Assembly (NCBI RefSeq): GCF_036023875.1
Contig: NZ_CP107931.1
Location: 3,038,001-3,102,000 of the forward strand
Direction of reading: 5' to 3'
Source: Mycobacterium sp. NBC_00419
GTDB lineage: Bacteria > Actinomycetota > Actinomycetes > Mycobacteriales > Mycobacteriaceae
DNA: 64,000 nt
Part shown: positions 12,605 to 18,106 of the stretch, piece after piece
Position numbering within the stretch: the first letter of the stretch is position 1
How the letters are laid out: every line of letters starts with the position of its first letter
Notes under the pieces: model-generated
The model's input: only the letters and a program-made list of their open reading frames with translations
What the model was told of the DNA's origin: nothing
Databases searched by the model: none
Translations under genes and position numbers: made by a program

Positions 12605-12895
12605 GTGACTGGTGCACCGGGCTATTCGGCCGACAAGGACGGGTATGCCAAGCGGCTACGCCGGATCGAGGGTCAGGTCCGCGGGATCGCGAAGATGATC
12701 GACGAGGACAAGTACTGCATCGACATCCTGACCCAGATCAGCGCCGTCAACAGCGCGTTGCAGTCGGTGGCCCTTGGCCTGCTCGACGAACACCTGAACC
12801 ATTGCGTCAGCCACGCCGTTGCCGAGGGTGGCGCGGAAGGCGAGAAGAAGCTGGCCGAGGCCTCGGCCGCCATCGCGCGCCTGGTCCGGTCCTGA
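12605..12895 (+). CDS. ricR: CsoR/RicR-family Cu(I)-sensing repressor
   Basis: 96 residues, all-helical CsoR family. Cys38 (KYCIDIL), His63 and Cys67 (HLNHC) match the C-H-C Cu(I) triad of M. tuberculosis CsoR (C36, H61, C65) with identical spacing. Family members bind TACCC-N5-GGGTA when apo and release DNA on Cu(I). GTG start directly after the DUF305 stop. Position beside ilvD matches Rv0190 (RicR), hence the symbol. The SD is the end of the preceding gene (GGGAGGGTAA). Confidence 0.92.
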   Translation: MTGAPGYSADKDGYAKRLRRIEGQVRGIAKMIDEDKYCIDILTQISAVNSALQSVALGLLDEHLNHCVSHAVAEGGAEGEKKLAEASAAIARLVRS

Positions 12896-12905
12896 CGGCT
12901 GATTT

Positions 12906-13943
12906 CTAGCGACCGGCCGTGCGGTCGAGCCATGCGACCACCACCATGTGGGGCACGGTGAGAGCCAGCAGTAGCCGCAGCACCTCGGCCACCAACCCGG
13001 CGGGATTCGGCGCCACCAGGGTGAACCACCCGAGGATCGCCACCGTCGCGAGTGCGGCCACCGACGGCCAGGCGGCCAGGCGCACGAAACGCGCGATCGC
13101 CGCCCCGCGCCGTCCGATTGCCACCAACTGCGCGCAGCCCGGCTCCACGGTCAGCATCCGGGCGCAATGCCGAAGCGCATGCCAGCCGCCGAACCACACG
13201 GCGAACGCCAGGAGCGGCGGCGCCAGTGCGCCGAGCAGTCCGATCAATACGATGTCGAGGGCGATGGCCCGCCGGCCGGCCCGAAGGGCGCCGGCCACCG
13301 CGACGACAGCAGCGGCGAGCCAACCGGCCGCCAGGGCGATCTGCACCCAACCAGAGCCCAGCCAGACGTCGATTCCGGGCGAGACCGCCGCCGCCACTCC
13401 GATGAGTTGGTCACCGGCACGGGCGAGGGGCAGGATCAGCGCCCCACATCCGGCGACCGTAATAGCAACGGCAACAACAATATTGGGACGCCATCCCGTC
13501 AGCTGGCGGGACACTTCGAGCTCCCCGAGGCCGAAGTGCAGTGCGCTGAGCGCGACGGCGGCGACAAGACCGACAGTGCCGAGCCACGTCATCAGCACCC
13601 ACGCGGTGACCGCCAACGTGGCGTAGACGGCGGCCACCGTGACGACCGAGGTGCGGCCGGTCAGTCGAGTCGCCATCAGATGGTCGACCGCGCCATGCGG
13701 AATGCCTGCCGCGAATCCGGCCGCGGCGAAGCACAGGACGATCGGGCCGATGTCAGCCGGAATCCACGACGCGATTCCGGCCAGCAGCAGCGCGGCCAGG
13801 GTGAGTCTGCGCGACCAGAGTGCGGCCGACTCCAGGGTCTGGATGTCCGCACCAGGCACGGAGCCCCCCGGGAGGTTCACTCCCGGGGGGCTCCCGCCTC
13901 CGCGCCACCATCGCACGCGGGGCCTGCGCGCGACGATGGTCAT
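12906..13943 (-). CDS. blh: Brp/Blh-family beta-carotene 15,15'-dioxygenase
   Basis: A polytopic membrane protein (8-9 hydrophobic segments) with GFAAGIPHGAVDHLMA and FGGWHALRHCARML. These carry the conserved His of the Brp/Blh family, which splits beta-carotene into two retinal molecules. It follows the rhodopsin on the same strand, the usual arrangement, and supplies the chromophore. The start is uncertain. The ATG at 13943 has no good ribosome site and would translate a 14-bp perfect hairpin; GTG at 13859 begins just after the hairpin, behind GGGGGG, and still retains every membrane segment. The function is not in doubt. Confidence 0.88.
   Translation of the reverse strand: MTIVARRPRVRWWRGGGSPPGVNLPGGSVPGADIQTLESAALWSRRLTLAALLLAGIASWIPADIGPIVLCFAAAGFAAGIPHGAVDHLMATRLTGRTSVVTVAAVYATLAVTAWVLMTWLGTVGLVAAVALSALHFGLGELEVSRQLTGWRPNIVVAVAITVAGCGALILPLARAGDQLIGVAAAVSPGIDVWLGSGWVQIALAAGWLAAAVVAVAGALRAGRRAIALDIVLIGLLGALAPPLLAFAVWFGGWHALRHCARMLTVEPGCAQLVAIGRRGAAIARFVRLAAWPSVAALATVAILGWFTLVAPNPAGLVAEVLRLLLALTVPHMVVVAWLDRTAGR
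13861..13893. other. Perfect 14-bp stem, 5-base loop hairpin at the rhodopsin-blh junction
   Basis: GAGCCCCCCGGGAG, loop GTTCA, CTCCCGGGGGGCTC on the plus strand. It is extremely GC-rich and without a T-run on either side, so it is not a classical terminator. In the minus-strand transcript its 3' arm supplies GGGGGG immediately before the GTG at 13859. It could therefore stabilise the upstream rhodopsin message, or hide the blh ribosome site and lower enzyme synthesis relative to opsin (inference). Confidence 0.7.
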
Positions 13944-13980
13944 CGGAGTCTGCCGGACCTAAAGCCGTCGTCGACGGTCC

Positions 13981-14835
13981 TTATTGTCCAGCAACCACTT
14001 TCGGCTTGCTGTTCGACGGCGTCACTGCGTCGTGCCCGTCGTGTTCGTTCTCCTGCGCGGAGAACGCCGGGTCATCGGCGAACGACTTCAGCCGCGCGAT
14101 CTTGTAGATCAGCAGGCCGTAGAGCACCTTGGCCAGGATGTCGGCGATCGAGTAGCCGACCTGCTTGTACACCCACGAGTCCGCGCCGGCCTGCGACAGG
14201 TACAGCGGAATGATGTAGGCGATCGGATAGACGCCCCAGGTAGCCAGCAACAGGATCCGCATCCGGCTGACGGTCTGGCGCACCGCGGGGGGCTGACGAT
14301 CCAGCGACCGGGTGAGTTCGACGAACAGCACGTAGAGGATGTAGAGGAACGGGATCGTCGACAGCAGCCCGAAGACGTTGCGAATGGTGTTGTCACCGCT
14401 GATCTCGCCGGGGTAGCCCAGTGCGATCATCGCGGCCGACGCCGGGATCAGCCGCCACAGCAGTGAGTTGCGCAGTTTGCGAGCCAGGGCCAGCACCACG
14501 ATGAGCTCGGTGAGCAGCAGTGGCACCGTCAGCAGCCAGTCGACGTAGCGGTATCCCTCGTTGAACGATTCGCCCGCGGCTTGGACGTAGGTCCCGCGGC
14601 CACCGGGGGCCTCGGTGACGAACGCTGCCTTGAACGATTCGAAGATGCGGAAGTAGTGGTAGGCGGCGATGCCGCACACGACCGCGGAGATCACCAGAGC
14701 CTGGCGGTACCGGGGTAGCACCCTGGGTTGGGCGACGAAGAGGAAGATCGCGCCGAACAACTGTGCGGCGAGTGTCAGAGACAGGATGTTGTAGACCGTG
14801 TCGTACTGGGCCTGGGTCAGTGCTTCAGGAATCAT
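13981..14835 (-). CDS. Microbial rhodopsin, D-T-E outward proton pump with antenna-site glycine
   Basis: 284 residues with seven membrane helices. Helix C reads YRYVDWLLTVPLLLTE, giving Asp99 (acceptor), Thr103 and Glu110 (donor), the D-T-E set of proteorhodopsin-type proton pumps. Leu107 at the tuning site predicts green absorption. His60 (AYHYFRIF) fits the His partner of the acceptor. Retinal is held by Lys236 (SIADILAKVLYG), with Asp232 as second counter-ion. In helix E, VFGLLSTIPFLYILYVLF aligns with the bacteriorhodopsin VWWAIST segment so that Gly156 replaces Trp138, as in xanthorhodopsin-type pumps that bind a carotenoid antenna. ATG with GAAGGTGA 5 bases before. Confidence 0.95.
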   Translation of the reverse strand: MIPEALTQAQYDTVYNILSLTLAAQLFGAIFLFVAQPRVLPRYRQALVISAVVCGIAAYHYFRIFESFKAAFVTEAPGGRGTYVQAAGESFNEGYRYVDWLLTVPLLLTELIVVLALARKLRNSLLWRLIPASAAMIALGYPGEISGDNTIRNVFGLLSTIPFLYILYVLFVELTRSLDRQPPAVRQTVSRMRILLLATWGVYPIAYIIPLYLSQAGADSWVYKQVGYSIADILAKVLYGLLIYKIARLKSFADDPAFSAQENEHDGHDAVTPSNSKPKVVAGQ

Positions 14836-14884
14836 TTCTCACCTTCACTGTGATGCGAGGCTTACAGAAAGAACCGTACGGTAA

Positions 14885-14899
14885 TGGACTACGAGTCCA
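14885..14899. promoter_or_regulatory. Candidate repressor palindrome in rhodopsin/TetR intergenic region
   Basis: TGGACT-ACG-AGTCCA is a perfect 15-base inverted repeat, 12 bases downstream of the proposed -10 of the rhodopsin promoter. A second related half-site, ATTGGACAAT, lies at 14921-14930 between the -35 and -10. ACCGTACGGT at 14873-14882 is another perfect palindrome. The positions suit a site for the divergent TetR protein. Confidence 0.5.
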
Positions 14900-14910
14900 A
14901 TAGTGGAAAC

Positions 14911-14938
14911 TTATTACAGAATTGGACAATTTTTTCAA
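14911..14938 (-). promoter_or_regulatory. Predicted promoter of rhodopsin gene
   Basis: On the minus strand TTGAAA, 16 bases, TAATAA. This is close to SigA-type -35/-10 elements, set in an AT-rich patch unusual for this window. The -10 lies 76 bases before the rhodopsin ATG. Confidence 0.5.
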
Positions 14939-15001
14939 CCGCTGGTTTCGTAGGTGCGGACACATCAGTTGGTGGGGACACCCGGCGAAGGGCAGGCGTG
15001 A

Positions 15002-15577
15002 GTGGGTGAGGATGCGCGGGTCATCCGCACGCGTGCCGACGTCGCACGCACCGCACTCGACCTACTGACCAGGGAAGGGCCCGACGCCCTCACCCACGCC
15101 CGGATCGCGGGGATCGCCCGCTACTCCAAGACCACGCTGTACGCGCACTGGCCGTCGAGGGCAGATCTGTTCGCGGCCGCGCTCGAAGCCCTCGGCGACA
15201 TGCCGCATCACGAGCCCACCGGAGATCTTCACGCCGATCTGGTCGGCGAGTTGAAGGCCTTCCGGCAGGCGGTGGTGGATCTGCGCCTGGATCGGGTGAT
15301 CTTCGGCCTCGCCCAGTGGTCGACCGTAGAGGCGATGGAGCAGGTCAGGGACCGGGTCAATACCGAGGGCCAGCGGCCCATCCGCGCGATCCTCGAGCGC
15401 GCCTTCGACGGCCCGGACCTCGAAGCGGCGATATCGATGCTGTCCGGCGTGGTTGCCTGTCCGTCGCTGATGTTCGGCGCACTGCCCGACGACGACATCA
15501 TCGAAGCGGCGGTCGGCATCGTTCTCAAGGGCGTGGACGTGGCCGGCCCGCCCAGTGGTGGCTCGGGCCGAGGCTGA
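15002..15577 (+). CDS. TetR/AcrR-family transcriptional regulator
   Basis: 191 residues. The N-terminal helix-turn-helix spans about residues 12-58 (TALDLLTREGPDALTHARIA and YSKTTLYAHWPSRADLF), followed by a ligand-binding C-terminal domain without assigned ligand. GTG start with GAAGGG ~8 bases before. It is divergent from the rhodopsin gene and shares its promoter region with two palindromes, so it is the best candidate for controlling the rhodopsin/blh pair and itself. It could alternatively serve the downstream MFS gene. Confidence 0.85.
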   Translation: MGEDARVIRTRADVARTALDLLTREGPDALTHARIAGIARYSKTTLYAHWPSRADLFAAALEALGDMPHHEPTGDLHADLVGELKAFRQAVVDLRLDRVIFGLAQWSTVEAMEQVRDRVNTEGQRPIRAILERAFDGPDLEAAISMLSGVVACPSLMFGALPDDDIIEAAVGIVLKGVDVAGPPSGGSGRG

Positions 15578-15676
15578 CGACCGGGCGCCGTATCGGCTGC
15601 CTCTCAGCACCGCATCGAACCGGTCTCCGGGGTGCCCCACCAGCGCTGTGGCCGATACCGTGATTCGGTGCCCTCG

Positions 15677-16933
15677 ATGCCCGACCACGCGGGCGTCAGG
15701 ACCGGCGCCTCGCCACCACCGCAGACCACCCCGTGGACTCCACGCGTCACCGTGGCGCTGGCCGTGCTGGCCGCCGCCGCATTCGTCTACGTCACCGCCG
15801 AGATCATGCCGGTGGGGGCCCTGTCGGCCATCGCCCGCGACCTGAAGGTCAGCGAGGCGATGGTCGGCTCCCTGCTGGCCAGCTACGCGCTGGTGGCCGC
15901 CGTCGCGACCGTGCCCCTGGTGCGCTGGACCGCGGCGTGGCCCCGGCGGCGAACACTGCTGTTGACCCTGGCCTCCCTGGCGCTCTCGCAGCTGATCTCG
16001 GCGCTGGCACCGACTTTCGCGGTGCTGGCCACCGGCCGGATCCTGTGTGCGCTCACCCATGGCCTGATGTGGTCGGTCATCGCGCCGATCGGGGTCCGGC
16101 TGGTGCCGGCCAGTTATGCCGGGCGCGCCACCATGGCTGTGTATACCGGCACCGGACTGGCGCTGGTCGTCGGAAGCCCGGTGACCGCGGCGATGAGCGA
16201 GGTGTGGGGCTGGCGGACGGCCGTAGGCGTCATCACGGTCGTCGCGGTCGCCGTAGCGGCGGCGGCCCGGCTGGCGCTGCCGCTGATGCCGATGACGGGA
16301 CGGCATCCCGCAACCGCCGCCGCGATCCGCCACCACCGCAACGGCCGATTGGTGGCGCTGAGCGCGCTGACCCTCGTCGGGGTCACCGCCCACTTCATCT
16401 CCTACACCTTCATCGTCGCGATCATCCGGGACGTGGTCGGTGTGCGCGGGCCGCATCTGGCGTGGCTGCTGGCTGGCTATGGCATCGCCGGGCTCACCGC
16501 GATGGCGCTGCTGGCCCGACCTGGCGATCGTCGACCGAAGACCGCGATCGTGGGCTGCCTTGCGGCTCTGGTGGTGGCCTTCGCCGTGCTCGCCGCTCTC
16601 GGGTTCTTCGAAAGCGGGCGCACCCTCGTGACCGTGCTGACCGGGGTGGCGGCCATCGTGCTGTGGGGTGCGGCGGCGACGGCGATGCCACCGATGCTGC
16701 AATCAGCGGCCATGCGGCACAGCCCGCAGGATCCCGACGGAGCCTCGGGGCTCTACGTGGCGTCCTTCCAGGTCGGGATCATGGCCGGATCGCTGGCGGG
16801 CGGGGTGGTCTATCAAACCGGCGGGATCGCGGCGACGGTGACGGCCTCGGGCGCGCTGATCCTGGCTGCGCTGGTGGTGGTGGCCGCCAGCCGGGACTTG
16901 TTCGCAGTTAGCCCGATCACCAGCGAAAAGTAA
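15677..16933 (+). CDS. MFS transporter (Rv0191-like)
   Basis: About 418 residues with 12 predicted membrane segments, of the DHA1 drug/sugar exporter type. The first helix carries FVYVTAEIMPVGALSAIARDL, typical of the AraJ/CmlA/SotB-like exporters. The loop 2-3 signature is short (RWTAAWPRRR) and helix 5 has TGTGLALVVGSPV. Start at ATG 15677 or GTG 15668; no strong ribosome site is visible. In M. tuberculosis this gene follows ricR directly; here the phototrophy cassette separates them. Substrate unknown. Confidence 0.85.
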   Translation: MPDHAGVRTGASPPPQTTPWTPRVTVALAVLAAAAFVYVTAEIMPVGALSAIARDLKVSEAMVGSLLASYALVAAVATVPLVRWTAAWPRRRTLLLTLASLALSQLISALAPTFAVLATGRILCALTHGLMWSVIAPIGVRLVPASYAGRATMAVYTGTGLALVVGSPVTAAMSEVWGWRTAVGVITVVAVAVAAAARLALPLMPMTGRHPATAAAIRHHRNGRLVALSALTLVGVTAHFISYTFIVAIIRDVVGVRGPHLAWLLAGYGIAGLTAMALLARPGDRRPKTAIVGCLAALVVAFAVLAALGFFESGRTLVTVLTGVAAIVLWGAAATAMPPMLQSAAMRHSPQDPDGASGLYVASFQVGIMAGSLAGGVVYQTGGIAATVTASGALILAALVVVAASRDLFAVSPITSEK

Positions 16934-17077
16934 CGATTGGCGCTCCGAAGGCGACTATCCGCACAGTTCAGCGCGTTGATGAGACCGTTGGAGATGTTCG
17001 CTGGCCAGTCGCGCAGGATTGGCTTACCAGCGCGCTGTGCAACACTGGAGCAAATCGCAATTCTGAGGAGTTTGGTT

Positions 17078-18106
17078 ATGGCGCTGCGGGTGAAGGAAGC
17101 CTTCGCGGCCACGTTGTGCGTGGTCGGGGTGGCTGCCGGAATCAGTCTGGGCAGTGGCTCGGCGATGGCCGATCCGGACCAGGCGCCCGTGGATCCGGCC
17201 GTGATCAACGTCCCGCCGGTGGAGGTTCCGCCCGCGGATCCGGCCATTCCGGTACCGGACCCGGCATTGGCTCCGCCCCCGCCCGTCGACCCGCTGGCTG
17301 TCCCGCCGGCAACCGACCCGGCCGCCGCGGCCCAGGCCGCGCCTGCCGGCTCCGTCAAGGGCCAGAACCCGCTGCCCTACACCGGTGACCCGGTCTTCGC
17401 GCCGCCGTCATTCAACCCCGTTAACGGTGCGCTGGTCGGAGTCGCCAAGCCGATCATCATCAACTTCGCGCGCCCGATCGCCAACCGGGGCCTGGCCGAG
17501 CAGGCCATCCACATCTCGTCGGTGCCCGCTGTGCCGGGTGCGTTCTACTGGACCACCGACACCCAGGTGCGCTGGCGGCCCTACGCCTTCTGGCCGGCCA
17601 ACACCGTCGTCAACATCGACGCCAGCGGCGCCAAGTCGAGCTTCCGGGTCGGCGATGCTCTGGTGGCCACCGTCGACGATAAGACCCACCAGATGACCGT
17701 GACCAAAAACGGCGTGGTGCTGAAGACCATGCCGGTCTCGATGGGCAAGCCCGACGGCAAGCACGAGACCAAGAACGGCACCTATTACGTGCTGGAGAAG
17801 TTCCCCGACATCATCATGGACTCGGCCACCTACGGCGTCCCCAACACCTCGCCCGAGGGCTACAAGCTGAAAGTCCAATGGGCCGTGCGCATCGACAACA
17901 GTGGTGCGTTCGTGCACAGCGCACCGTGGTCGGTCGGCGACCAGGGCAAGCGCAACGTCAGCCACGGCTGCATCAACCTCAGCCCGGACAACGCCAAGTG
18001 GTTCTATGACAACTTCGGCAGCGGTGACCCGATCGTGGTGAAGAACTCGGTGGGCTTGTACAACAACCCCGACGGCGCCGACGACTGGCAGTGGCAGCTG
18101 GCCTGA
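17078..18106 (+). CDS. L,D-transpeptidase, YkuD domain (Rv0192-like)
   Basis: 342 residues from the ATG preceded by GAGGAG. It has a signal peptide ending near [11 protein letters not shown], a Pro/Val/Asp-rich linker (~60 residues), an Ig-like bacterial domain and a C-terminal YkuD catalytic domain. The active site is [11 protein letters not shown], then [10 protein letters not shown] with the nucleophile Cys. The family makes 3-3 cross-links in mycobacterial peptidoglycan and is the carbapenem target. No lipobox, so it is predicted secreted or anchored by an uncleaved signal. Gene order matches Rv0191-Rv0192. Confidence 0.93.

What the first reader, a model, noticed from the sequence alone, without database searches (positions are those of the whole stretch)
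12906..15577. Rhodopsin, retinal synthase and TetR cassette inserted between ricR and its usual neighbour
In the M. tuberculosis arrangement as remembered, the copper repressor (Rv0190) is followed directly by the MFS gene (Rv0191). Here a complete light-driven pump cassette (rhodopsin plus Blh) and a divergent TetR gene lie between them. Rhodopsin is not a standard mycobacterial trait. With a beta-carotene-producing host this gives retinal-based phototrophy that could add to proton-motive force under nutrient limitation. The carotenoid genes are not in the window and must be elsewhere.
Basis: partly seen in the sequence, partly recalled or inferred. Interest (0 to 1): 0.85.

Follow-up and report, generated by a model that had tools for sequence, protein, structure and literature searches.

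The report
Mycobacterial rhodopsin cassette with sunscreen-type regulator
This environmental mycobacterium carries a compact gene set for a light-driven proton pump and its retinal pigment, and the regulator beside it belongs to a family that elsewhere sits next to UV-sunscreen genes with the same kind of DNA boxes, which suggests a common sunlight programme in these bacteria.

Summary
The cassette is real: rhodopsin (13981-14835, -), Brp/Blh retinal synthase (12906-13943, -) and a divergent TetR gene (15002-15577, +) lie between ricR and the Rv0191-like MFS gene. The rhodopsin has the key residues of a xanthorhodopsin/actinorhodopsin-type proton pump, including the antenna glycine. The genome holds crtE/crtI/crtB-type genes and a lycopene cyclase elsewhere. 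Rhodopsin in mycobacteria is not new (reported 2015) and is patchy: 32 of 396 genus genomes. A recent insertion is not supported: silent-site divergence of the cassette matches its flanks.

The new part is the TetR. Of 67 relatives found in those 396 genomes, 13 sit beside rhodopsin, 39 beside mycosporine-type UV-sunscreen clusters, 11 beside a second cytochrome-b gene (qcrB2), 4 elsewhere. In three loci rhodopsin, Blh and qcrB2 follow the TetR in one run. Of 17 outside the genus, 16 are sunscreen-linked. In the genus the three classes share palindromic boxes (GTTCAYTARTGAAC) mostly stepped by exactly 19 bp; outside it, mostly one box is seen. Three boxes precede the window's rhodopsin. Best reading: a retinal-phototrophy operon under a regulator probably derived from a sunscreen regulator. 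Binding, inducer and light response are untested.

The parts
13981..14835 (-). rhodopsin gene, 284 aa, xanthorhodopsin/actinorhodopsin-type proton pump
   Evidence: PF01036; nearest solved relatives RlActR 9hfk, GR 6nwd, psXR, Kin4B8, XR 3ddl; H60, R96, D99, T103, E110, G156, D232, K236
12906..13943 (-). blh, beta-carotene 15,15'-dioxygenase of the Brp/Blh family; the true start may lie downstream of 13943
   Evidence: TIGR03753 over cut-off; His/Asp set H83, D87, H88, H136, H255, H259, H332, D340 invariant in 12 sequences
15002..15577 (+). TetR-family regulator, divergent from rhodopsin
   Evidence: PF00440; 67 genus hits classified by neighbour; tree
14874..14891 (.). operator-like box 1, nearest the rhodopsin start (core 14876-14889)
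14893..14910 (.). operator-like box 2, 19 bp from box 1 (core 14895-14908)
14912..14929 (.). operator-like box 3, 19 bp from box 2 (core 14914-14927)
13854..13899 (-). strong GC-rich hairpin at the rhodopsin-blh junction, inside the 5' end of the blh frame
   Evidence: fold -52.8 kcal/mol over 66 nt; z -8.5
12605..12895 (+). ricR, left flank
   Evidence: NF052430 183.7 bits
12017..12604 (+). CopM/DUF305 gene before ricR
15632..16933 (+). MFS gene (Rv0191-like), right flank
   Evidence: PF07690; adjacent to ricR in empty-site genomes
16937..18106 (+). L,D-transpeptidase gene (Rv0192-like)
   Evidence: PF03734
10237..11934 (-). ilvD (Rv0189c-like)
   Evidence: PF00920 and PF24877

Best explanation
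The three genes form one functional unit for retinal-based light use. Shown from sequence: a rhodopsin with the DTE set (D99/T103/E110), H60, Schiff-base K236 and the fenestration glycine G156; a Blh with its conserved His/Asp residues; and crtE/crtI/crtB-type genes plus a lycopene cyclase elsewhere in the genome. Inferred: beta-carotene is cleaved to retinal by Blh, retinal loads the rhodopsin, and light drives protons out, adding to proton-motive force; a carotenoid antenna is possible. Also shown: the TetR belongs to a subfamily whose members lie next to sunscreen (mycosporine-type) clusters, rhodopsin cassettes or qcrB2, and in this genus the three classes share a 19-bp-stepped palindrome array in the shared promoter region. 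Inferred: the TetR represses itself and rhodopsin-blh by binding this array, and an unidentified signal, plausibly produced by sunlight, releases it. The rhodopsin cassette thus probably took over a regulator of a family used for UV sunscreen.
For: Pump residues and relatives. Blh residues. Carotenoid genes. Constraint between this species and DL592: rhodopsin 93% identical in protein, 121 of 155 fourfold sites identical. TetR contexts in the genus, 67 of 67 hits classified: MAA 39, rho 13, qcrB2 11, other 4; three further named rho loci bring. Outside the genus 16 of 17 MAA, 1 rho. Boxes: the MAA-built model on rho loci scores mean 17.35, dinucleotide-shuffled mean 5.12, highest of 30 shuffled means 6.77; 15 of 16 rho loci exceed all 187 control upstream regions, and 33 of 39 MAA loci with the rho-built model exceed all 391. 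Neighbouring boxes are 19 bp apart in 19 of 27 (rho), 76 of 83 (MAA) and 13 of 17 (qcrB) pairs; 38 bp in 14 of the remaining 19. In 272 stretches held (3.2 Mb, many overlapping) every array of two or more boxes lies at a promoter of this TetR.
Against: No expression, light or binding data exist here. The seed palindrome was chosen by eye after looking at upstream regions of all three classes, so the cross-class test is not fully blind, and the classes share TetR ancestry, so shared boxes are not independent origins. Outside the genus 15 of 16 MAA loci show one box over threshold and no array, and one shows none. One rho locus (L053) has no good box; L224 and L225, TetRs of the same branch without rhodopsin, have none. 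Only 7 of 11 qcrB loci exceed their control maximum, possibly because mispredicted gene starts put controls over the array, which I did not check. The array is absent from the genome's own crt loci, so pigment supply is not visibly co-regulated. The cyclase passes only a subfamily model, so beta-carotene as product is inferred. 22 of 35 rhodopsin places in the genus had no such TetR in the stretch fetched, some at contig ends.
Confidence: 0.7

Rival explanations
1. The rhodopsin acts mainly as a light sensor that talks to the TetR rather than as an energy pump.
For: A proton-pumping rhodopsin of Gloeobacter is reported to bind a helix-turn-helix regulator and to change gene expression with light (PMC11217422, abstract and outline). 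Here a TetR is linked to rhodopsin in 16 loci.
Against: The residues of an efficient proton pump are conserved, and most TetRs of the subfamily sit beside sunscreen genes with no rhodopsin near, so the TetR works without one.
Confidence: 0.12
2. The boxes are not a TetR operator but an element for another factor, conserved because tetR and its promoter are inherited together.
For: Shared ancestry of all loci; mostly a single box outside the genus.
Against: Boxes are palindromic and rigidly phased; rhodopsin loci without this TetR have no array; two TetRs of the rhodopsin branch without a rhodopsin neighbour also lack the array.
Confidence: 0.15
3. A recent horizontal insertion into the ricR-MFS gap of this lineage.
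For: Empty site in 18 of 31 relatives compared; rhodopsin predicted as horizontally transferred in other mycobacteria (PMC4524478, passages); same cassette at several other sites.
Against: Same site occupied in ENV421, which nests with empty-site genomes; fourfold-site identity to ENV421 is 0.67/0.53/0.43 for rho/tetR/blh and 0.65/0.55/0.52 for ilvD/MFS/esterase. The lower values are near saturation, so an old transfer between the two lineages is not excluded.
Confidence: 0.25
4. A decaying passenger cassette without function in this strain.
For: Patchy distribution and absence in close relatives.
Against: Intact frames, key residues in place, and fewer protein than silent changes against DL592.
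Confidence: 0.05

Closest known systems
Actinorhodopsin of Rhodoluna lacicola (PDB 9hfk) and xanthorhodopsin-type pumps (GR 6nwd, Kin4B8 7ytb/8i2z, XR 3ddl)
   Same: 46-55% identical over the core, same pump residues, same fenestration glycine. An actinorhodopsin reported as dual-chromophore is in PMC8113403 (passages).
   Different: Mycobacterial branch, linked to Blh and a TetR; antenna binding unknown.
Proteorhodopsin genes in M. chlorophenolicum, M. chubuense and M. rufum (PMC4524478, passages)
   Same: Same rhodopsin clade and the same tetR-rho-blh cassette in the first two (L071, L070).
   Different: Other chromosomal site; the passages that I read speak of rhodopsin synteny and transfer, not of the TetR or an operator.
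Actinobacterial mycosporine-type clusters with HAD and TauD genes (PMC11888242, section 36)
   Same: Same gene set in the locus checked: DHQ-synthase-like, O-methyltransferase, ATP-grasp, D-Ala-D-Ala-ligase-like, TauD, HAD.
   Different: That section does not mention a TetR; the window's genome gives no match for the cluster's ATP-grasp protein.
Gloeobacter rhodopsin and its regulator GvTcR (PMC11217422, abstract and outline)
   Same: A proton-pumping rhodopsin tied to a helix-turn-helix regulator.
   Different: There the rhodopsin protein is reported to bind the regulator; here only gene linkage and operator-like boxes are shown. Relation of the two regulators was not tested.

Membership tests
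Xanthorhodopsin/actinorhodopsin-type proton pump | Schiff-base lysine and D-T-E set | tested here: met
   K236, D99, T103, E110, aligned with XR and GR
Xanthorhodopsin/actinorhodopsin-type proton pump | glycine at the XR G156 fenestration position | tested here: met
   G156 in the FGLLSTIP stretch, invariant in 15 sequences
Xanthorhodopsin/actinorhodopsin-type proton pump | rhodopsin fold | tested here: met
   AlphaFold2 model, mean pLDDT 76.6; best Foldseek match GR, E 1.3e-17, TM 0.76/0.86
Xanthorhodopsin/actinorhodopsin-type proton pump | light-driven outward proton transport; carotenoid antenna | not testable with these tools
   needs spectroscopy and a pH assay
Brp/Blh beta-carotene dioxygenase | family model over cut-off and conserved histidines | tested here: met
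   TIGR03753 126.4 over 95.25; His/Asp set invariant in 12 sequences; that these are the metal ligands is recalled
Complete retinal supply | phytoene synthase, desaturase and lycopene cyclase in the genome | tested here: met
   PF00494 233.9 bits; TIGR02734 517 bits; PF05834 187 bits and TIGR01790 230.3 over 209.5; crtE by PF00348 and position only
Complete retinal supply | heterodimeric CrtYc/CrtYd cyclase | tested here: not met
   no TIGR03462 match in the genome; a CrtL-type cyclase is present instead
TetR regulator of its divergent operon | TetR DNA-binding domain | tested here: met
   PF00440 35.6 over 24; all-helical model, nearest Ms6564 and other TetRs
TetR regulator of its divergent operon | operator in the shared promoter, bound in vitro | tested here: inconclusive
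   box array found and tested across classes; binding not testable here

The most novel reading that the evidence does not exclude
Mycobacteria and their family share a sunlight regulon: one TetR subfamily with a 19-bp-stepped palindrome array controls UV-sunscreen synthesis, retinal phototrophy and, in some species, an alternative cytochrome b of the bc1 complex placed directly behind rhodopsin and Blh, so that light capture, shielding and respiratory electron flow are switched by the same signal.
Probability: 0.35. Interest if true: 0.82.

Novelty: new variant of a known kind. Interest (0 to 1): 0.62.

Why it matters
Mycobacteria are usually treated as strict chemoheterotrophs (recalled). 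A proton pump with its own pigment synthesis and regulator in about 8% of the sampled species of the genus makes light a possible energy source. The regulator gives a handle: a defined, short box array that can be tested by gel shift and reporter, and that ties rhodopsin to UV-sunscreen genes and a second QcrB. It makes directly testable how non-photosynthetic actinobacteria sense and answer sunlight.

Tried and rejected
A first box pattern with wrong spacing gave scores mostly no better than shuffles and was replaced by the 14-bp palindrome, chosen by eye. Genus-wide co-occurrence of rhodopsin and TetR is strong (17 of 32 rhodopsin genomes against 37 of 364 others) but partly reflects TetRs at sunscreen clusters, so neighbour classification was used instead. 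In one search only the best 8 candidates per genome were scored, so TetR paralogues may be missed. A CrtYc/Yd cyclase was sought and not found. The own genome has one qcrB only and no match to the sunscreen ATP-grasp query (the tool warns that an empty answer alone shows little; a homologue of that query from L193 matched the 39 MAA loci). The array was sought in the own crt loci and not found. The G055 rhodopsin with a 674-aa open frame looked like a fusion; it is an ordinary rhodopsin in a long frame with a Blh-like frame overlapping behind it (read by eye). The TetR model gives no ligand: nearest solved structures are SCO0332 (2zb9) by sequence and Ms6564 (4jl3) by fold. Papers on a TetR linked to sunscreen or rhodopsin genes in mycobacteria were sought (25 of 43 listed; 3 of 3; 15 of 41; 20 of 48; 15 of 44; 6 of 6; 15 of 52; 15 of 18; 1 of 1); I saw none in the listings, but only open-licence full texts are searched, lists were cut, and I opened five papers only (passages of PMC4524478, PMC2889829 and PMC8113403, section 36 and passages of PMC11888242, outline and abstract of PMC11217422). 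Rows dropped: the rhodopsin tree kept rows of at least 60% identity and 200 residues, one per distinct sequence, 85 of the 106 loci with a match. The loci L224 and L225 stay unclassified.
Full report
What is there. Between ricR and the Rv0191-like MFS gene lie blh (12906-13943, -), a rhodopsin gene (13981-14835, -) and a divergent TetR gene (15002-15577, +). Rhodopsin and blh are a likely operon with 37 bases between them; blh runs tail to tail into ricR. The window is 3038001-3102000 of a single 5.6-Mb contig, and the genome has one PF01036 gene.

The rhodopsin. By sequence the best solved relative is 9hfk (283.8 bits), then Gloeobacter rhodopsin, psXR, Kin4B8 and xanthorhodopsin; one search names 9hfk as the Rhodoluna lacicola actinorhodopsin. 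H60, R96, D99, T103, E110, D232 and K236 are in place, and G156 aligns with the xanthorhodopsin glycine that opens the carotenoid site. A paper on another actinorhodopsin makes the same point for its Gly145 (PMC8113403, passages). The AlphaFold2 model is moderate (mean pLDDT 76.6).

Retinal supply. Blh is over the TIGR03753 cut-off and keeps H83, D87, H88, H136, H255, H259, H332 and D340, invariant in 12 sequences. At about 714-720 kb of the genome lie a crtI (517 bits), a crtB (234 bits), a polyprenyl synthase in the crtE position, a UbiE-like methyltransferase and a further FAD desaturase-like gene. No CrtYc/Yd domain was found, but a CrtL-type lycopene cyclase is at 2730506-2731579 (187 bits; TIGR01790 230.3 over 209.5). 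Beta-carotene is therefore likely, not proven.

Distribution. PF01036 rings in 32 of 396 genomes of the genus, 22 of 361 of good quality, at 35 places. Named carriers include M. chubuense DSM 44219, M. chlorophenolicum, M. bohemicum, M. helveticum, M. lacusdiani and strain ENV421. Proteorhodopsin in M. chlorophenolicum, M. chubuense and M. rufum, missing by synteny in two other strains and called horizontally transferred, is in PMC4524478 (passages).

Age of the site. Of 31 ricR loci compared, 3 carry the cassette, 18 have ricR and the MFS gene adjacent, 10 show no MFS match in the stretch held (the 31 are the loci of the 30 best RicR hits among the 198 genomes, one per genome, plus DL592). 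On the ilvD-ricR tree this genome and DL592 pair (100/100) beside empty-site genomes, while ENV421 nests with empty-site genomes (99/97). Yet the three rhodopsins are one clade (SH-aLRT 97, quick tree). Fourfold-site identity between this genome and ENV421 is 0.67, 0.53 and 0.43 for rho, tetR and blh, against 0.65, 0.55 and 0.52 for ilvD, MFS and esterase. So the cassette looks no younger than its surroundings; repeated loss, or an old exchange, fits better than a fresh insertion. A two-gene tree cannot settle this.

The regulator. TetR relatives (E at most 1e-25) occur in 54 of 396 genus genomes, 67 hits, with 8 candidates per genome scored. I fetched all 67 and three more named rhodopsin loci. 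By neighbour, the 70 are MAA cluster 39, rhodopsin 16 (13 of the 67), qcrB2 11, other 4. The MAA genes were checked against families in one locus, L194: DHQ-synthase-like, O-methyltransferase, ATP-grasp, D-Ala-D-Ala-ligase-like, TauD and HAD, the set described for Actinomycetota in PMC11888242 section 36; the other 38 rest on tblastn matches. In L059 (M. bohemicum), L062 (M. helveticum) and L081, rhodopsin, blh and qcrB2 follow the TetR in one run at the fabG1-inhA site. In the family, 23 of 301 genomes have a relative, 17 of them outside the genus: 16 beside an MAA cluster, 1 beside rhodopsin. On the TetR tree the 16 rhodopsin and 11 qcrB2 rows with 2 others form one branch (SH-aLRT 95, quick tree without bootstrap) apart from the 39 MAA rows (it holds no rows from outside the genus but L066). 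The rhodopsin and qcrB2 regulators thus look like an offshoot of a sunscreen regulator; the root is not inferred by the tree.

The operator-like array. Seeds of GTTCANTANTGAAC with at least 9 of 12 matches occur in 16 of 16 rho, 39 of 39 MAA and 11 of 11 qcrB upstream regions. Cross-class scores: MAA model on rho 17.35 against 5.12 shuffled; on qcrB 21.1 against 3.4; rho model on MAA 17.0 against 4.2. The seed was picked by eye over all classes, so this is not a blind test. Against upstream regions of other genes in the same loci, 15 of 16 rho, 33 of 39 MAA and 7 of 11 qcrB loci exceed the highest control. Spacing of neighbouring boxes is 19 bp in 108 of 127 pairs and 38 in 14 (summed by me); this regular step was not used in finding the boxes. 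In the window three boxes at 14874-14891, 14893-14910 and 14912-14929 give tandem scores 27.1 and 24.2; the next best tandem in 64 kb is 8.3, which includes box 1, and 1.9 outside 14801-15000. In 272 held stretches (3.2 Mb, many overlapping) arrays of two or more boxes are found only at promoters of this TetR; rhodopsin loci without the TetR have none, though a few have a single weaker box. Exceptions: L053 has no good box, L224 and L225 have none, and outside the genus only the Rhodococcus rhodopsin locus has an array, while 15 of 16 MAA loci show one box and one shows none.

Mechanism. The TetR probably sits on the three boxes between 39 and 94 bases before the rhodopsin start, blocks rhodopsin-blh and its own gene, and leaves on a signal. 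Because its kin stand beside sunscreen genes, the signal is plausibly tied to sunlight or photo-oxidation; this is inference. A strong hairpin follows rhodopsin in the blh 5' end (-52.8 kcal/mol; z -8.5); of 13 cassettes folded at this junction 10 have z below -2 and 3 do not (-0.9 to -1.4). It may lower blh relative to rhodopsin; weak evidence.

Verdict. Rhodopsin in mycobacteria is known. The tie between rhodopsin, UV-sunscreen and qcrB2 loci through one TetR subfamily and a phased box array was not seen in the paper listings and is the part worth following.

Noticed in passing
L193-L199, L203-L205 and most of L218-L255 (39 loci): Mycosporine-type sunscreen clusters with a divergent TetR of the same subfamily stand in 39 loci of the 396 genus genomes searched.
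   Followed up: partly
L059:8781-13115, L062:7119-11412, L081:9277-13648: Rhodopsin, blh and a second cytochrome-b gene (qcrB2) stand in one run behind the TetR at the fabG1-inhA site; 11 loci have only tetR and qcrB2.
   Followed up: partly
window 13854-13899 and L042, L050 equivalents: A strong hairpin at the 5' end of the blh frame; similar hairpins fold in two relatives with base changes (weaker by z in L050). The annotated N-terminus may not be translated.
   Followed up: partly
G126, G139, G382: Three small or incomplete mycobacterial genomes carry two PF01036 genes each; one type is only about 29% identical to the window's rhodopsin.
   Followed up: no
L252:5351-7300: A TetR of the subfamily stands divergent to an FAD amine-oxidase/desaturase-like gene (named by eye) with a single weak box between.
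   Followed up: no
L224, L225: TetRs nested among rhodopsin-linked ones, without rhodopsin and without the boxes; possibly remnants of a lost cassette.
   Followed up: no
L063:10052-11853: A distant rhodopsin (33%) with an overlapping Blh-like frame behind it.
   Followed up: partly
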